A stretch of 64,000 bases of DNA from Rhodobacterales bacterium 52_120_T64 (GTDB lineage: Bacteria; Pseudomonadota; Alphaproteobacteria; Rhodobacterales; Rhodobacteraceae), in assembly GCA_002162875.1 (NCBI GenBank), contig MABA01000004.1, positions 62,001 through 126,000 on the forward strand, read 5' to 3'. Positions 32,062 to 38,560 of this stretch are shown piece by piece. Every line of letters begins with the position of its first letter. The stretch's first letter is position 1. The notes under the pieces were generated by a model that worked only from the letters and a program-made list of their open reading frames with translations, was not told the DNA's origin and searched no databases. The translations under genes were made by a program, and so were the position numbers.

Positions 32062-32754
32062 ATGCGTTTTATTAAGTTCTTCGCCGTTGCCTTAAGTTTA
32101 TATCTTCCTTCCGCCGCATTTGCACAGAATGTCGTGGTGGAGCTGTTCACCTCGCAAGGGTGCAGTTCTTGCCCGCCGGCGGACGACATTCTAAGTGAAT
32201 TGGCATCGAAGGAAGGTGTCATTGTTCTTGGTTGGCACGTTGATTATTGGGATTATCTGGGCTGGAAAGACGAATTTTCACGTCCTGAGAACACTGATCG
32301 TCAAAGGGGGTATCGCGATCGCTGGAACTTGCGATCACTCTACACACCTCAAGCGGTTATTCACGGTGAAGCACAAACCGTTGGTAGTAGCGAACAAGAT
32401 ATCCGTATGTATGTGGACCAGTTTCAAGCCGAAAAACCATTGCTGGAAATTAATTTTAACACGTCGGAAGCTGTCGCAATCATCAGTGTGTCTGCGTTGG
32501 CGTCCAGATTACCAGCGGCGGATATTTTCCTTGCCCGCATAACACCCGAAGCGACCACCAGCATCCGTCGTGGCGAAAATGCAGGTCGAACTATAAGCTA
32601 TGTAAACGTAGTCGAAGCGATGACTTGGATCGCCAATTGGAATGGTAAATCCGATGTTACAGTTCGCGCGTCCATTCGCGGTGACAGCAAATATGTGGTG
32701 TTAGTTCAAGCGAAAGATTTTGGGCCTGTTTTGGGGGCCGAGTACCTGAACTAA
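32062..32754 (+). CDS. DUF1223 secreted thioredoxin-like protein
   Basis: 230 residues with an N-terminal signal peptide ending AAFAQ and a DUF1223 domain. The domain opens with VVVELFTSQGCSSCPPAD, giving a CxxC motif at about residues 34-37, and continues with VIVLGWHVDYWDYLGWKD. A periplasmic redox role is suggested by the fold only. The last 4 bp overlap the convergent nucleotide-sugar dehydrogenase gene. Confidence 0.85.
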   Translation: MRFIKFFAVALSLYLPSAAFAQNVVVELFTSQGCSSCPPADDILSELASKEGVIVLGWHVDYWDYLGWKDEFSRPENTDRQRGYRDRWNLRSLYTPQAVIHGEAQTVGSSEQDIRMYVDQFQAEKPLLEINFNTSEAVAIISVSALASRLPAADIFLARITPEATTSIRRGENAGRTISYVNVVEAMTWIANWNGKSDVTVRASIRGDSKYVVLVQAKDFGPVLGAEYLN

Positions 32755-34076
32755 AGACTCCAATGCGTAATGGTTTCAGGGATATCGGCGCGGTTCAATA
32801 CGGACCGAATATCAATGATAACACCTCCGTCGCGAACTCGTTCAAAAACGTTGGCTGCCAAATATTCATCGTGAGGCACCGCCAAAACAAGTAGGTCCAA
32901 CATTGGCATGTCGCCAATATTTACCCAATCAAACGCGCCCTCGGGAATTTCTGTCGGGTTGGCTATGGGGTCATGTACCATCGGGCGCACACCGAACTCA
33001 GATAGTGCATCCAGCACATCAAAGGTCTTGGAGTTACGCAAATCCGGCACGTTTTCCTTAAATGTTAGACCCAGAACGCCAACTTTGGCGCGAGACAACG
33101 GTACGTTCAATGACGCGAGCATTTTGATAGCTTTGGCGGCGATAAAAGCCCCCATTCCATCGTTGACACGCCGACCAGACAGGATGACTTCGGAGTGATA
33201 CCCTACTTCCTCGGCTTTGGCCGTCAGATAATATGGGTCCACGCCGATGCAATGCCCGCCGACCAAACCAGGTGTGAAGGGCAGAAAATTCCATTTGGTT
33301 GAAGCTGCTGCGATTACGTCGCTAGTGCGTACATCTAGGCGGTCGCAGATAATGGCGATCTCGTTCATTAGAGCAATGTTAACATCGCGCTGGGTGTTCT
33401 CGATGACCTTGGCTGCCTCTGCAACACGAATGGATGGGGCGCGGTGGATGCCTGCGTGGACCAACGTGCCGTAAACGTCTGCTACTCGTTGCAGGGATTC
33501 AGCGTCTTGGGCAGCCACTACCTTGGTAATCGTTTCAATACGGTGTTCTGTATCGCCAGGATTAATACGTTCGGGGCTGTACCCCAGTTTAAAGTCGGTC
33601 CCGCACCGCAGGCCAGATATTTCGGCAAGGATTGGGCCGCAGATGTCTTCAGTAACGCCGGGGTAGACCGTGGATTCAAAAACAACGATGGCGCCTTTGG
33701 ACAGATGCGGAGCGATGGTTTCACAGGCCGCCCGCAACGGCGCGAGATCCGGGCGGTTACCTTTGTCGATGGGGGTTGGGACTGTGACGATGAAGAAACT
33801 GGCATTCGAAAGTTTGGTGACGGCATGCGTAACGTCCAGGCGGGAGGTCTCTATTTCAGCGCGGCCGATTTCCAGCGTGTTGTCGAAACCGTCGGCTAGC
33901 TCGCGGATGCGGGATTTGTTGATGTCGAACCCCGTAACGTTGGCGAAATGGCGGGCAAAGCCGATGGCGACGGGTAGACCGACATAGCCAAGACCGACGA
34001 TAGCGATGGTTTCGTCTGTGCGGAGTGGCAAAACGGGAAGCGCATCGACAAGTTGGAAGGGGGTGGTAACATTCAT
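32751..34076 (-). CDS. nucleotide sugar dehydrogenase (UDP-HexNAc/UDP-hexose 6-dehydrogenase family)
   Basis: 441-residue enzyme oxidising a UDP-sugar at C6 to the uronic acid in two NAD-dependent steps. The Rossmann motif is VGLGYVGLPVAIGFA (about residue 27), and the catalytic cysteine sits in GLVGGHCIGVDPYYLT (about 262). The TviB/WbpO-like sequence (GFDINKSRIRELADGFDNTLEI) points to UDP-GalNAc or UDP-GlcNAc dehydrogenase, but the exact sugar is not certain. It is the last gene of the polysaccharide block, 15 bp after the KpsE-like gene. Confidence 0.88.
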   Translation of the reverse strand: MNVTTPFQLVDALPVLPLRTDETIAIVGLGYVGLPVAIGFARHFANVTGFDINKSRIRELADGFDNTLEIGRAEIETSRLDVTHAVTKLSNASFFIVTVPTPIDKGNRPDLAPLRAACETIAPHLSKGAIVVFESTVYPGVTEDICGPILAEISGLRCGTDFKLGYSPERINPGDTEHRIETITKVVAAQDAESLQRVADVYGTLVHAGIHRAPSIRVAEAAKVIENTQRDVNIALMNEIAIICDRLDVRTSDVIAAASTKWNFLPFTPGLVGGHCIGVDPYYLTAKAEEVGYHSEVILSGRRVNDGMGAFIAAKAIKMLASLNVPLSRAKVGVLGLTFKENVPDLRNSKTFDVLDALSEFGVRPMVHDPIANPTEIPEGAFDWVNIGDMPMLDLLVLAVPHDEYLAANVFERVRDGGVIIDIRSVLNRADIPETITHWSL

Positions 34077-34091
34077 TGTTTAAACTCCTGT

Positions 34092-34922
34092 TCAGTTTCG
34101 GGCGTAGTGCCGAAAACTTTGGAAAAAAATGCCTCCAATCGAGAATATTGAAAGGCTGACGAGGAATGTGAGTAGGGTGTTGGGGAGTACGCGAGCGACG
34201 GCGCGGTCAGGTGGAATTGGTCCGGCTAGCACTTTAACCCTTGCAGGGAACGCTAAAGTGTTAGCCGTTTTAACCAGTTCGGAGTTTTGCAAATAGGCCT
34301 GCGTTGGCGTTGTCGCCAACGTCGTTATCGTTAACAGTCCTTGCGTGGTGTCGATGGCCATCTCGAAGCCTGGACCCTCGTGGTCTTGCATTTTAACACG
34401 AAGTTGGAACGCTGCGGCCATGGTGGATTGCATAGTTGAGATGTCGTTGAACAACGGGTTGCGGCGGAGGGATGGCATCGCCCCCTCAATGGCGAGGGTG
34501 CTGGTGGACTGAAAAACGGGTATGGCCATAAACGTGTAAAAAACTGCGGTTAGAAGTGTAGGGAGGAAAACAGAAACTGCCATCAGTCCTGCCGTCAGGC
34601 GATGGGATTTTCGGCGTGCTGATCTTAGTGCTGCGCAGGCGGTTTCGATGTCGTCCAACGCTTCCAAGTGCGCGCGGGCTTTGTCCATCCGCCGCGCTTC
34701 TATCGCTTCGGATTCTTCTCGGCGCCGATTTTCGGCGGTTCGAATGCGTTCAGCTTTGTCGGTCTCAAAGCGGTCCAGACGGGTTTTTCGATCGGTATCT
34801 GCTTGACGTAAACGCTCGGTGTTTGGGTCTGCGGCGGCTTGGCGTCGGACCTCTCGCCACTTGCGAAGGCGTTCCTGTTCTTGTGCCAAATTCGGGGACT
34901 GTATAGGGGCGCTATCCGACAT
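34092..34922 (-). CDS. short KpsE/BexC-like polysaccharide co-polymerase/export protein
   Basis: About 276 residues from ATG at 34922, which overlaps the end of the kpsT-like gene by 11 bp. Residues about 15-105 are an extremely charged, Arg/Glu-rich predicted coiled coil facing the cytoplasm. The membrane helices are at about 111-133 and 249-270. Between them only about 115 residues remain for the periplasmic part, well short of the long coiled-coil arm of typical KpsE/CtrB proteins. The N-terminal continuation of the frame to 35024 lies within the upstream gene and is not used. The role as exporter partner is inferred from the operon. Confidence 0.7.
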   Translation of the reverse strand: MSDSAPIQSPNLAQEQERLRKWREVRRQAAADPNTERLRQADTDRKTRLDRFETDKAERIRTAENRRREESEAIEARRMDKARAHLEALDDIETACAALRSARRKSHRLTAGLMAVSVFLPTLLTAVFYTFMAIPVFQSTSTLAIEGAMPSLRRNPLFNDISTMQSTMAAAFQLRVKMQDHEGPGFEMAIDTTQGLLTITTLATTPTQAYLQNSELVKTANTLAFPARVKVLAGPIPPDRAVARVLPNTLLTFLVSLSIFSIGGIFFQSFRHYARN

Positions 34923-35607
34923 TGCGGGCGACCTCGTTCCAGTAAGTGTTGCCATATCCGCCGGCATAATCGAGAATGTCCTGCGCTTCTTCGGGCGACG
35001 AGCAGGGCAATAGTTGCCCTGCATGCAGCGCGTAAAACTTTGTGCAGAACCGGTTAAGTGTGCGGGCGTGGCGGGATATTAAGATCAGACCAGAGCGTGT
35101 CAAACGTTCTAGCAACGCGGCTTCGCATTTATCTCGAAAACTGTGGTCACCCGCACTGGTGATACCGTCGCTTAGATAAGTGTCGAACTCAACCGACATG
35201 GAAAATGCAAAGCCAAGTCGTGCGCGCATGATGGGGGCGTATTGATCGATTGGTCGGTGAAAGTAGGGGCCGATGTCGGCGAAACTTTCGCAATAATCCG
35301 TGGTTTCTTTGACGTTACGTCGTAACAATCGAGCGAGGAATCGGACGTTTTGAGCCCCTGAAAGCCCTGCGTGAAATCCCACTGTGCTGCCGATCGGATG
35401 TGACAGGCTGTTATGACGTTGAACGTTGCCGATGTCAGGGCGTTCAACACCAGAAAGAATCCGCGCGAGAGTGGTTTTACCTGTCCCGCCCAAGGCCAGA
35501 ATGCCAACGCTTTCGTTACGGGCAAACTGTGTGGAGACATTATTCAGAATGATGTTTGGATTGGTTTTGTCAGGGTGGTACCTGCTGACGTTGAACATGG
35601 ATATCAT
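34912..35607 (-). CDS. kpsT: KpsT-like capsule-export ABC ATPase with degenerate catalytic motifs
   Basis: 231-residue homologue of KpsT. Walker A is intact (GGTGKTT, Lys44). At the signature, the family YSSGM is YAPIM (about 123-127). After the Walker B Asp147 the catalytic Glu is Gly148 (YLSDG where relatives have YLVDE). At the switch position the family SHA/SHD is SRH, placing Arg179 where His is expected. I confirmed these codons on the minus strand; Gly148 is GGT, two base changes from GAA or GAG. It overlaps kpsM by 4 bp. It may be a non-hydrolysing or decaying subunit, or partner a second ATPase. Confidence 0.85.
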   Translation of the reverse strand: MISMFNVSRYHPDKTNPNIILNNVSTQFARNESVGILALGGTGKTTLARILSGVERPDIGNVQRHNSLSHPIGSTVGFHAGLSGAQNVRFLARLLRRNVKETTDYCESFADIGPYFHRPIDQYAPIMRARLGFAFSMSVEFDTYLSDGITSAGDHSFRDKCEAALLERLTRSGLILISRHARTLNRFCTKFYALHAGQLLPCSSPEEAQDILDYAGGYGNTYWNEVARNVG

Positions 35608-36395
35608 GTGAGCTCCATCCCGTCGCGACCGCGTTTGAAGGCGGATTGCATCACGTAGGAGGTCATCAAGATCACCGTCGAAAACCCCAGTGGGACAGCT
35701 ATATTGGCGAAGCTAGACGTGTAATCTAGGAAAACCCCGGAACGAGTAATCTCGATTGTGTGCAGCAAAGGATTCCATTGCAGATAGATATGAAGTGCAG
35801 AGGGCAACTCGGGCGCAGTGAAGAAAATACCAGATATCCAGAACATTGGCCGAAGCACAACTGGAACCATTCGTTTGGCCGTTTCGGATACCATGCCGAG
35901 GATGGCGAAGAACCGGCCAACAGCAGTGCCGAGCATGGCGGTAAGCAACAGGCCATTGATGAATTCTAAAGGGTTTTCGATGGGTGTTGGGCCAAACGCC
36001 ACTGACAAAACCACCCAGATTATAGCGAATATGATGATTGCGTTCTGAAGTTCCAGTAATGCGGCGGCGAACAGTAGGTCTGATCCGCGTACACCGCCGA
36101 AATGGACTAGATGTCGGTGGGTAGAGGCAACGCGGCTCATTGAAGTGATGGTGTAGCGGAACAGTACATAGGGCACGACACCCGTGGCGATAAAGGCTGG
36201 GGTGTCCACGGGTATCGCAGGGCTGCGACCTAGCAGGGCGAAGAAATACATTAGGGTTCCGATCCACAATAGTGGAACAAGGAATGCCCACATATACCCA
36301 AGCGGGTCGCCTGCGAAACGGCATCGGACCTCGCGTAACATGATGGTTTGGATGGTACTGGCCCAGTTCCACATGCCATTTGCGAAATGTGTCAT
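35604..36395 (-). CDS. kpsM: KpsM-like ABC-2 polysaccharide export permease
   Basis: 263-residue inner-membrane permease with six hydrophobic segments and the ABC2_membrane pattern, including the N-terminal RYAGDPLGY-like segment (here RCRFAGDPLGYMWAFLVPL) and the PMFWISGIFFTAPELP re-entrant region. It overlaps the glycosyltransferase gene and kpsT by 4 bp each, so the set is translationally coupled. It carries a lipid-linked polysaccharide across the inner membrane with KpsT and KpsE. Confidence 0.9.
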   Translation of the reverse strand: MTHFANGMWNWASTIQTIMLREVRCRFAGDPLGYMWAFLVPLLWIGTLMYFFALLGRSPAIPVDTPAFIATGVVPYVLFRYTITSMSRVASTHRHLVHFGGVRGSDLLFAAALLELQNAIIIFAIIWVVLSVAFGPTPIENPLEFINGLLLTAMLGTAVGRFFAILGMVSETAKRMVPVVLRPMFWISGIFFTAPELPSALHIYLQWNPLLHTIEITRSGVFLDYTSSFANIAVPLGFSTVILMTSYVMQSAFKRGRDGMELT

Positions 36396-38560
36396 GCGCG
36401 AGCTGCCGTTTTATAATATGTCTCGGAGTCTGAAAGGCCTGATAAAAGTTGCAGTGTTTTGGGTAGTATGCTTTCCATCGCGAAAGTTTCGGATGCGAAT
36501 GCCGCCGCAGCGATCCCCATAGCTTCTCGTTGTGATGTCTCAGTGGCTAACTTTAAGAAGTATCCCAAAAATTGTGCCAATTGCGGCTGTTCAGTGGATC
36601 CGAGCAAATAACCGGTTTGGTCCGGGACAAATGCCTCGGCAGCGCCACCAGCGGGAGTCGAGATGACAGGGATGCCTGCGAGTTGTGCTTCGATTAACAC
36701 GTTGGGCAGGCCTTCAAGCCGCGAGGTCAAGCCAAGCGCATCCATTCTTGACAGCCAATATCCGACGTTTCGGGATTTTCCGACGAACAGGCAGCGATGC
36801 GCGATTCCCAGTTCCTCGGCGTAAGATTGTGCGGCAGTTAACAGCGTGCCGTCGCCGACCAAAACAAATCGGCTATTTGGGTAAGCGACCATTGCGGCGG
36901 CTGCGAATTCCAGCCACATGTACGGGCGTTTATTTTGATCAAATCGAAAAACTGCGCCAAAGGTAAAATCCGCGTCGGGTGTGGACTTTACGAACTTTTC
37001 CCAACGTTTGCGTTCGAGGTTAGTTCCGTTAGCGTTGATCAACTCAGCCGCATTATGGACGACGCGGATGGCATCTGCGGGCAGCTCTAGCCAGCGGGCG
37101 TAGGCGTCAGCGCCTGCTTGTGTGTTTGCGGAGAAGGTCACGCCGGGAATCTTTGACAAAACACAATACATGTCGAAATATTCGTCCTTCATCATTTCGG
37201 GACGCAGGTCAGGCGGCATGCCGCGCAAGGATATGACTATATGTGGGATGTTTGCGGCAAGCGCTGCTAACGCCGTGGCCAACACCGCGCCGTCTTGCCA
37301 GATGTAGGCTACCTCGGGGCGCACGGTTGTGAGGTGGGGGGTAAGACGGCGAACCGCCTCGGCCGTTTGCGGTGGCAGAAAGCGGAACAGGTTTTCTGGC
37401 ACGGGGGACGGGCCGGCTGGAAGCTCATTGATTACGGAGACGGGAATGTCGGCATCTTGCAGTTTTGGCAGGAAAAAGTCGCGCCCCCTTTCTGGGGATA
37501 GTGTGTTGACGAAAACTTCGATTGGGCCAGTGATGCCGAATTGGTCTGGCTTGTTGATCGACTGGCCGCGTTTCATTTCGACAGCCATACGTGTCATTTG
37601 CCGTTCTGCGCCCCCTGCGCCAAGCGATCCGGTGATGAAAGCGACCCCACCGATATGTGGCGAGATCGATGTGACAGGCGAACGGTCCTGAAATTGTTGC
37701 AAAGCTTGTGACAAGGCAGTGGATGGGGTCAGCGCACGCGCATGATTAGGTGCGATGTAGGTATCGAACAAGCCGTCGAAAAGGAAAGCACCGAAGTCCT
37801 CGGAATAATGCGAAAGGCTGGTTTCGGCATCCGACATTGCCGCCTGTTGCCCGAACGCTTGCATGGATGCAGTTGGGTTGAAAATCGGCAACTTTAGGTT
37901 TTGTGCAACGTCTTCAACCATCGCAATGTATGCCGCACGGCTAGCGATGGGTGTTTGGATGTTTGAAAGAGCGTTACAGTGGCTTATGAAAACCACGTTT
38001 GGTAGGCGGTCGCGGATTTCGGTCAGGTCGCGCGATAGCGTATCAAGGGTTGAGAGAGAGCGTGTTAGTTTTTCCAGCAAAGTTTGATCACTACCGGATA
38101 GAGCTCGAAAGCTTTCCTGTTTGGTAAGGAATGTTCGTTTTTCCTCTTCCTGTCGGCCGTCTGCCAAACGCCAGAAATCACGAGCACGGTGTTTGTCGCC
38201 GAAGAAATCGGCGAAGTGTCGAGTGGTATAATTAAGTTGGACTTGGGTATCATCGATCCGCAGTTCTTTTGCAGACGACAACTCGATAAAATATATGTCC
38301 GACGTCGGGTGTTGTGTGCCCTTGAGCGCGTCAACATCGACGTTCGGCATTAACAGCGGCAAGGTTTCAGCAAGCGGTGTAAATTCGCCCTGAAGAAACC
38401 GGACTTGCTGTAAAGCCTCGGCGCTGGTGTGGGTGTAACCGTAGATGCGGTCCGTGTTGTTAACGACAGGATGACACATTGCCGCCGCTTTGAACGGAGT
38501 GCTGATCCGGCAGGATCCAATGGCGGTTATCCTTGTCAATTCTCTCACTGGCGGCCTCAA
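36392..38560 (-). CDS. two-domain protein: GSCFA/SGNH-like N-terminus plus family GT4 glycosyltransferase
   Basis: 722 residues. The N-terminal ~280 residues begin ITAIGSCRISTPF and contain VVFISHCNAL and ETSLSHYSEDFGAFLF, which resemble the GSCFA/SGNH-hydrolase-like polysaccharide domain (a weak, by-eye assignment). The C-terminal ~400 residues are a GT4 transferase: the donor-site entry motif GSLGAGGAERQM at about residue 315 and the EX7E-type SRLEGLPNVLIEAQLAGIPVIST near 620. It is the first gene of the polysaccharide operon, overlapping kpsM by 4 bp. It probably both modifies and extends the exported glycan. The sugar and linkage are unknown. Confidence 0.78.
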   Translation of the reverse strand: MRPPVRELTRITAIGSCRISTPFKAAAMCHPVVNNTDRIYGYTHTSAEALQQVRFLQGEFTPLAETLPLLMPNVDVDALKGTQHPTSDIYFIELSSAKELRIDDTQVQLNYTTRHFADFFGDKHRARDFWRLADGRQEEEKRTFLTKQESFRALSGSDQTLLEKLTRSLSTLDTLSRDLTEIRDRLPNVVFISHCNALSNIQTPIASRAAYIAMVEDVAQNLKLPIFNPTASMQAFGQQAAMSDAETSLSHYSEDFGAFLFDGLFDTYIAPNHARALTPSTALSQALQQFQDRSPVTSISPHIGGVAFITGSLGAGGAERQMTRMAVEMKRGQSINKPDQFGITGPIEVFVNTLSPERGRDFFLPKLQDADIPVSVINELPAGPSPVPENLFRFLPPQTAEAVRRLTPHLTTVRPEVAYIWQDGAVLATALAALAANIPHIVISLRGMPPDLRPEMMKDEYFDMYCVLSKIPGVTFSANTQAGADAYARWLELPADAIRVVHNAAELINANGTNLERKRWEKFVKSTPDADFTFGAVFRFDQNKRPYMWLEFAAAAMVAYPNSRFVLVGDGTLLTAAQSYAEELGIAHRCLFVGKSRNVGYWLSRMDALGLTSRLEGLPNVLIEAQLAGIPVISTPAGGAAEAFVPDQTGYLLGSTEQPQLAQFLGYFLKLATETSQREAMGIAAAAFASETFAMESILPKTLQLLSGLSDSETYYKTAARA

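What the first reader, a model, noticed from the sequence alone, without database searches (positions are those of the whole stretch)
34912..35607. KpsT-like export ATPase has lost three catalytic hallmarks while keeping Walker A
Seen directly: YAPIM replaces the family signature YSSGM, YLSDG replaces YLVDE (no catalytic Glu), and SRH replaces SHx at the switch position. The Walker A lysine is intact. From ABC-ATPase knowledge these changes should abolish normal ATP hydrolysis, yet the gene is intact and tightly coupled to kpsM and to a KpsE-like gene. It may be a regulatory or heteromeric subunit that pairs with an ordinary KpsT elsewhere, or early decay.
Basis: partly seen in the sequence, partly recalled or inferred. 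Interest (0 to 1): 0.72.

Follow-up and report, generated by a model that had tools for sequence, protein, structure and literature searches.

The report
Capsule exporter with crippled ATPase motor
The motor protein of a marine bacterium's capsule exporter has lost the parts needed to burn ATP, and so have its relatives in every Vi-type capsule cluster we could read, so the loss is an old, preserved trait of this exporter family and raises the question of what drives export.

Summary
Window 34912-35607, minus strand, encodes an intact 231-aa ABC ATPase with YAPIM (signature), SDG148 (no catalytic Glu) and SR179H (no switch His); Walker A Lys44 and Walker B Asp147 remain. It is not decay or a sequencing error: ten species of the genus share SDG and SRH, and dN/dS is about 0.05. 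The interpretation needs changing. The gene belongs to a reduced Vi-type capsule cluster (TviD/TviE fusion, VexB, VexC, VexD, TviB), and hallmark loss is a trait of that family. Of 23 Vi-type VexC-like proteins from Alpha- and Betaproteobacteria, 1 keeps the switch His, 7 the catalytic Glu, 7 the signature Gly; 24 of 24 ordinary KpsT-like proteins keep all three. In Caballeronia even the P-loop is gone. The curated NCBIfam VexC model favours Gly at the Glu site and Thr at the signature Gly, so the experimentally required Salmonella VexC probably lacks them too. Two complete genomes with degenerate VexC hold no ordinary KpsT, which speaks against an obligatory canonical partner. Best reading: a nucleotide-binding, hydrolysis-poor gate or scaffold of a Vi-type exporter, with chain growth probably supplying much of the push. 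The mechanism is inferred, not shown.

The parts
34912..35607 (-). VexC-like (KpsT-family) ABC nucleotide-binding subunit, 231 aa; Lys44 and Asp147 kept; signature Gly126 replaced by Ile, catalytic Glu148 by Gly, switch His179 by Arg
   Evidence: predicted NBD fold pLDDT 88, best match KpsT 8tsl_A Z 27.3
35604..36395 (-). VexB/KpsM-like ABC-2 permease, 263 aa; ATGA overlap with the ATPase gene
   Evidence: (PF01061; NCBIfam VexB 151.6 bits)
36392..38560 (-). fusion of a TviD N-terminal domain (presumed O-acetyltransferase) and a TviE-like glycosyltransferase, 722 aa
   Evidence: (TviD 150 bits over aa 10-270; TviE 405 bits over aa 282-705)
34092..34922 (-). short VexD/KpsE-like co-polymerase, 276 aa from ATG 34922; lacks the long periplasmic coiled-coil present in full-length relatives
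   Evidence: no Pfam/NCBIfam hit
32751..34076 (-). TviB-like UDP-sugar dehydrogenase, 441 aa
   Evidence: NCBIfam TviB 403.6 bits

Best explanation
The protein is the nucleotide-binding subunit of a reduced Vi-type capsule exporter (VexC-like), and its lost hallmarks are a conserved trait of that exporter family. Most likely it sits as a homodimer under VexB, binds ATP through the retained Lys44 and Asp147 (and perhaps Arg179 contacting the gamma-phosphate), but hydrolyses it slowly or not at all. It would then serve as a nucleotide-dependent gate and docking scaffold for the nascent glycolipid, opening about once per chain. Chain extension by the TviE-type glycosyltransferase, which is fused to the TviD domain and coupled to the exporter genes, would supply much of the push. 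Shown: sequence, family membership, conservation, purifying selection, absence of a canonical partner in some relatives. Inferred: ATP binding, homodimer, gating, polymerisation-driven movement.
For: Locus: TviD/TviE, VexB, VexC, VexD, TviB with NCBIfam Vi-family hits. Same kind of locus in six further genera of the family, two genera of another alphaproteobacterial family and nine genomes of a betaproteobacterial family. Hallmark counts in 23 Vi-type VexC-like versus 24 ordinary sequences: Glu 7 vs 24, signature Gly 7 vs 24, switch His 1 vs 24; Walker A Lys 18 vs 24. With motif columns removed, the 18 non-Caballeronia rows form one clade, 98/93. The whole genus keeps SDG and SRH; dN/dS 0.05, lower than the permease at 0.09. 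The NCBIfam VexC model gains about 3 bits for Gly over Glu at the catalytic site, about 2.8 for Thr over Gly in the signature and about 3.4 for His over Arg at the switch, on two or three template proteins, while the galactan and TagH models in the same scans prefer Glu, Gly and His. In the Salmonella viaB locus expressed in E. coli, vexC::Tn5 leaves Vi in the cytoplasm and is complemented (PMC3448643), so a VexC of this kind works. Synthesis and export of Vi are reported to be closely coupled (PMC9597891).
Against: No biochemistry. In canonical KpsT, Glu to Gln at the same site abolishes export (PMC11041684), so an exporter with Gly there must work differently or have slow residual turnover. 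The window protein scores 91 bits against the VexC model (cut-off 313), so it is VexC-like, not an orthologue by that test. The Salmonella sequence itself was not read, only inferred from model scores. Polymerisation-driven movement has no direct evidence.
Confidence: 0.6

Rival explanations
1. It is a working homodimeric ATPase with unusual chemistry: water is activated without the Glu (substrate-assisted, or by another residue), and the motif changes only slow it.
For: Lys44 and Asp147 are kept; several relatives keep Glu and a readable signature; ABCB1 Walker B Glu mutants are reported to keep residual ATPase (PMC7756269). One slow cycle per chain could suffice.
Against: No conserved acidic substitute near Gly148; the His at +1 is not conserved in the family. 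Caballeronia relatives lost even the P-loop, so at least there hydrolysis cannot be the job. KpsT E151Q abolishes export (PMC11041684).
Confidence: 0.25
2. A regulatory or heteromeric subunit that pairs with the canonical KpsT encoded elsewhere in the genome, one degenerate plus one active site, as in TAP or CFTR.
For: A canonical KpsT exists in the same genome. Heteromeric exporters with one degenerate site are common (PMC7756269).
Against: 266 of 296 family genomes have a KpsT-like gene, so co-occurrence is uninformative. G1031 has the degenerate gene without a detected canonical KpsT; G1027 and G1032 the reverse. Complete genomes G537 and G1022 have a degenerate VexC and no other KpsT; their other hits are soluble ABC-F proteins. 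The canonical copy has its own KpsE.
Confidence: 0.1
3. Early decay or relaxed constraint of the exporter.
For: Several motifs lost; the neighbouring VexD is shortened.
Against: Same losses fixed across ten species; dN/dS 0.05, below that of the permease; open, coupled reading frames and the whole locus retained.
Confidence: 0.03
4. Sequencing or assembly error at these codons.
For: None found.
Against: Identical residues in independent assemblies of relatives.
Confidence: 0.01

Closest known systems
VexC of the Vi capsule exporter (viaB locus; NCBIfam NF011724)
   Same: Neighbours TviB, TviD, TviE, VexB; 231 positions in the model; the model itself favours Gly at the catalytic Glu site and Thr at the signature Gly
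   Different: 91 bits against a cut-off of 313; switch His is Arg here but the model favours His; VexA, VexE and TviC are not in the window's cluster; TviD and TviE are fused; VexD is short
KpsT of group 2 capsule exporters (8tsi/8tsh, KpsMT-KpsE)
   Same: Fold (Z 23-27, 29-30% identity), partner permease, coupled KpsE-like gene
   Different: KpsT keeps Glu151, signature and switch His, and needs Glu151 for export (PMC11041684)
Heteromeric ABC exporters with one degenerate site (TAP, TM287/288, CFTR)
   Same: Loss of Glu and switch His in a nucleotide site
   Different: There one site of each pair stays canonical; here no canonical partner is encoded in the locus, and none at all was found in two relatives' genomes

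Membership tests
Canonical KpsT-type ABC ATPase | Walker A lysine and Walker B aspartate | tested here: met
   Lys44, Asp147
Canonical KpsT-type ABC ATPase | Signature glycine (YSSGM) | tested here: not met
   YAPIM; 24/24 ordinary sequences have Gly
Canonical KpsT-type ABC ATPase | Catalytic glutamate after Walker B | tested here: not met
   Gly148; 24/24 ordinary have Glu
Canonical KpsT-type ABC ATPase | Switch histidine | tested here: not met
   Arg179; 24/24 ordinary have His
Canonical KpsT-type ABC ATPase | NBD fold of polysaccharide-export transporters | tested here: met
   AlphaFold2 pLDDT 88; 8tsl_A Z 27.3, rmsd 2.2, 222 aligned
Canonical KpsT-type ABC ATPase | ATP hydrolysis coupled to export | not testable with these tools
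   needs an assay
Vi-type exporter NBD (VexC) | Encoded with TviB, TviD/TviE, VexB and VexD | tested here: met
Vi-type exporter NBD (VexC) | Groups with other Vi-locus VexC apart from KpsT | tested here: met
   18 rows, 98/93, motif columns removed; the Caballeronia rows lie on a very long branch and are not placed
Vi-type exporter NBD (VexC) | NCBIfam NF011724 equivalog cut-off 313 bits | tested here: not met
   91.5 bits; hence called VexC-like, not VexC
Vi-type exporter NBD (VexC) | Complete viaB set with VexA and VexE | tested here: not met
   neither in the window; no VexE match in the own genome (without a positive control in that search); one OPX protein elsewhere
Heteromeric degenerate-site exporter | Canonical partner NBD available | tested here: inconclusive
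   present in the own genome, not detected in G1031, no KpsT beside VexC in G537 and G1022

The most novel reading that the evidence does not exclude
Vi-type capsule exporters, including that of Salmonella Typhi, are ABC transporters whose own motor no longer powers transport: the NBD is a gate or scaffold, ATP hydrolysis is slow or absent, and the growing polymer is pushed out by its own synthase. In Caballeronia the motor has become a complete pseudo-ATPase.
Probability: 0.3. Interest if true: 0.88.

Novelty: new variant of a known kind. Interest (0 to 1): 0.62.

Why it matters
Capsule export through ABC transporters is assumed to be driven by the KpsT-type ATPase, and one Walker B change stops it in the best-studied case. 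A whole, widespread and selected family of Vi-type exporters that has lost the catalytic Glu, the switch His or the signature, up to loss of the P-loop, gives a natural test of whether hydrolysis or polymer synthesis moves the chain. It also bears on how the Vi capsule, a vaccine antigen, reaches the cell surface.

Tried and rejected
Decay and sequencing error: rejected by genus-wide conservation and dN/dS. A neighbouring residue supplying Glu or His: no acidic substitute near Gly148, and the His at +1 is not conserved in the family. Obligatory canonical partner: not supported. Plasmid hits with 40-44% identity (Sphingobium, Cupriavidus, Novosphingobium) turned out canonical and served as controls. 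dS is saturated for several pairs and some pairs could not be computed, so omega is a rough figure; selection was not tested site by site. The Salmonella VexC sequence was not obtainable here; its motifs are inferred from how the NCBIfam model scores single-residue variants of three proteins from non-pathogens.

Full report
The observation. Window 34912-35607 on the minus strand is an uninterrupted 231-codon frame. Its Walker A is ALGGTGKTT with Lys44, its signature YAPIM, its Walker B YLSDG with Asp147 and Gly148, and its switch SRH with Arg179. The start overlaps the stop of the upstream permease gene as ATGA, and the downstream gene starts inside its end, so the genes are translationally close. 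In an alignment with 24 ordinary KpsT/KpsT-like sequences, all 24 have the signature Gly, the catalytic Glu and the switch His.

The surroundings. The five genes on the minus strand from 38560 to 32751 are a TviD N-terminal domain fused to a TviE-type glycosyltransferase, a VexB/KpsM-like permease, this ATPase, a short KpsE/VexD-like protein and a TviB-like dehydrogenase. NCBIfam gives TviE 405 bits, TviB 404, TviD 150 and VexB 152. None reaches its equivalog cut-off, so the locus is Vi-like, not a viaB orthologue. VexA, VexE and TviC are not in the cluster. In the own genome an OPX protein lies elsewhere, and no VexE relative was found (that search had no positive control).

Not decay. Ten of 13 genomes of the genus carry the gene, the other nine at 68-90% identity to the window's, and all ten have SDG and SRH; the signature is YAPIM, YAPVM, YAPGM or YAPAL. 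Nei-Gojobori dN/dS over usable pairs has a median of 0.05 for the ATPase against 0.09 for the permease, 0.22 for the KpsE-like gene and 0.02 for the canonical KpsT of the same genomes. Many dS values are near saturation, so these are rough, but relaxed constraint is excluded.

A family trait. Using the permease and TviE as bait, Vi-type loci were found in six further genera of the family, in two genera of another alphaproteobacterial family (G537, G1022) and in nine genomes of a betaproteobacterial family: Caballeronia-type species, G957, and the small-genome pair G1092/G1069. The last two carry the fuller TviBCDE-VexABCDE set. Every VexC-like protein read is degenerate somewhere. G1092 and G1069 lack only the switch His (Arg instead). 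Rhodobacteraceae lineages have Arg or Lys at the switch, mostly altered signatures, and Glu, Asp or Gly at the catalytic site. G537 keeps His but has Gly for Glu. The Caballeronia group has lost the P-loop as well (ALLSRTPEAHRALI) and the one scanned gives no Pfam ABC_tran match, with dN/dS near 0.2. Over 23 sequences the counts are: Walker A Lys 18, signature Gly 7, Walker B Asp 21, catalytic Glu 7, switch His 1. These are not independent samples. A tree with the motif columns removed puts the 18 non-Caballeronia rows in one clade (98/93) and needs at least three changes for His and four for Glu. The Caballeronia rows sit on a branch of 3.2 changes per column and are not placed.

The model family member. 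Single-residue variants of G1069, G1022 and the window genome's canonical KpsT were scored against the curated VexC model. It gains 2.2-3.2 bits when the catalytic Glu or Asp becomes Gly (three templates) and 2.8-2.9 bits when the signature Gly becomes Thr (three templates); it gains 3.4-3.5 bits for His over Arg at the switch (two templates). The galactan and TagH models prefer Glu, Gly and His, which is the control. The Salmonella/Citrobacter-type VexC, on which that model is presumed to be built, therefore probably lacks the catalytic Glu and the signature Gly but keeps His. This is an inference from scores. It matters because vexC insertion mutants of the Salmonella locus expressed in E. 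coli accumulate Vi in the cytoplasm and were complemented (PMC3448643): a degenerate VexC would then be a working part.

Partner or not. The window's genome has one canonical KpsT (APNGTGKTT, YSAGM, LIDEG, VSHS) beside a full-length KpsE, while its best KpsM candidate lies on another contig. Most genomes of the family have a KpsT-like gene (266 of 296), so its presence says little. In the genus the two occur independently. In G537 and G1022, both rated complete, a KpsT query finds only the Vi-type VexC, and the remaining hits are ABC-F proteins. An obligatory canonical partner is therefore unlikely for the family, though not excluded for the window's species.

Mechanism. The predicted fold is an ordinary NBD (pLDDT 88; KpsT 8tsl_A Z 27.3, rmsd 2.2 over 222 residues), so docking to VexB should be intact. 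Lys44 and Asp147 are kept, so ATP binding is plausible. Changing the Glu to Gln stops export in KpsT (PMC11041684). A conserved Arg/Lys at the switch could hold the gamma-phosphate rather than promote its loss. Vi synthesis and export are described as closely coupled (PMC9597891). The reading preferred here is a gate or scaffold that cycles rarely, with chain growth supplying much of the movement. Only the sequence and evolutionary parts of this are shown.

Co-varying change. The KpsE/VexD-like partner is short (275-289 aa, without the long coiled-coil) throughout the genus and in G146 (329 aa), the Rhodobacteraceae lineages with Gly or Asp in place of Glu, and full-length in the Rhodobacteraceae lineages that keep Glu. 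G537 and G1022 break the pattern: they lack Glu and have full-length VexD. So it is a hint within one family only.

Novelty and score. VexC, KpsT and degenerate heteromeric sites are known; a widespread exporter family whose only encoded NBD is degenerate in this way was not found described in the library searched. It is a new variant of a known kind.

Noticed in passing
window 34092-34922 (-); L048:7887-8876; L125, L127, L128, L129: VexD/KpsE-like protein lacks the long periplasmic coiled-coil in the whole genus and in G146, but is full length in the other Vi-type loci.
   Followed up: partly
window 36392-38560 (-): TviD N-terminal domain and TviE glycosyltransferase are fused in one 722-aa protein in the genus; they are separate genes in the other Vi-type loci examined.
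   Followed up: partly
L131:12578-13891, L148, L150-L152: Caballeronia VexB carries an extra N-terminal region of about 190 aa (437 aa in all), starting with a motif (RRIDDWRARRQ) like the cytosolic N-terminus of Rhodobacteraceae VexD; its VexC is a complete pseudo-ATPase.
   Followed up: partly
L046:2297-2950 (G000:C15): The canonical KpsT of this genome has a one-residue insertion and altered D-loop (LIDEGMPGTSD), shared across the genus; its likely KpsM is on another contig (L045:8509-9345).
   Followed up: no
L069:7523-8221: G537 VexC keeps the switch His (THS) but has Gly for the catalytic Glu and Ser in the signature, the pattern nearest to what the NCBIfam VexC model favours.
   Followed up: no
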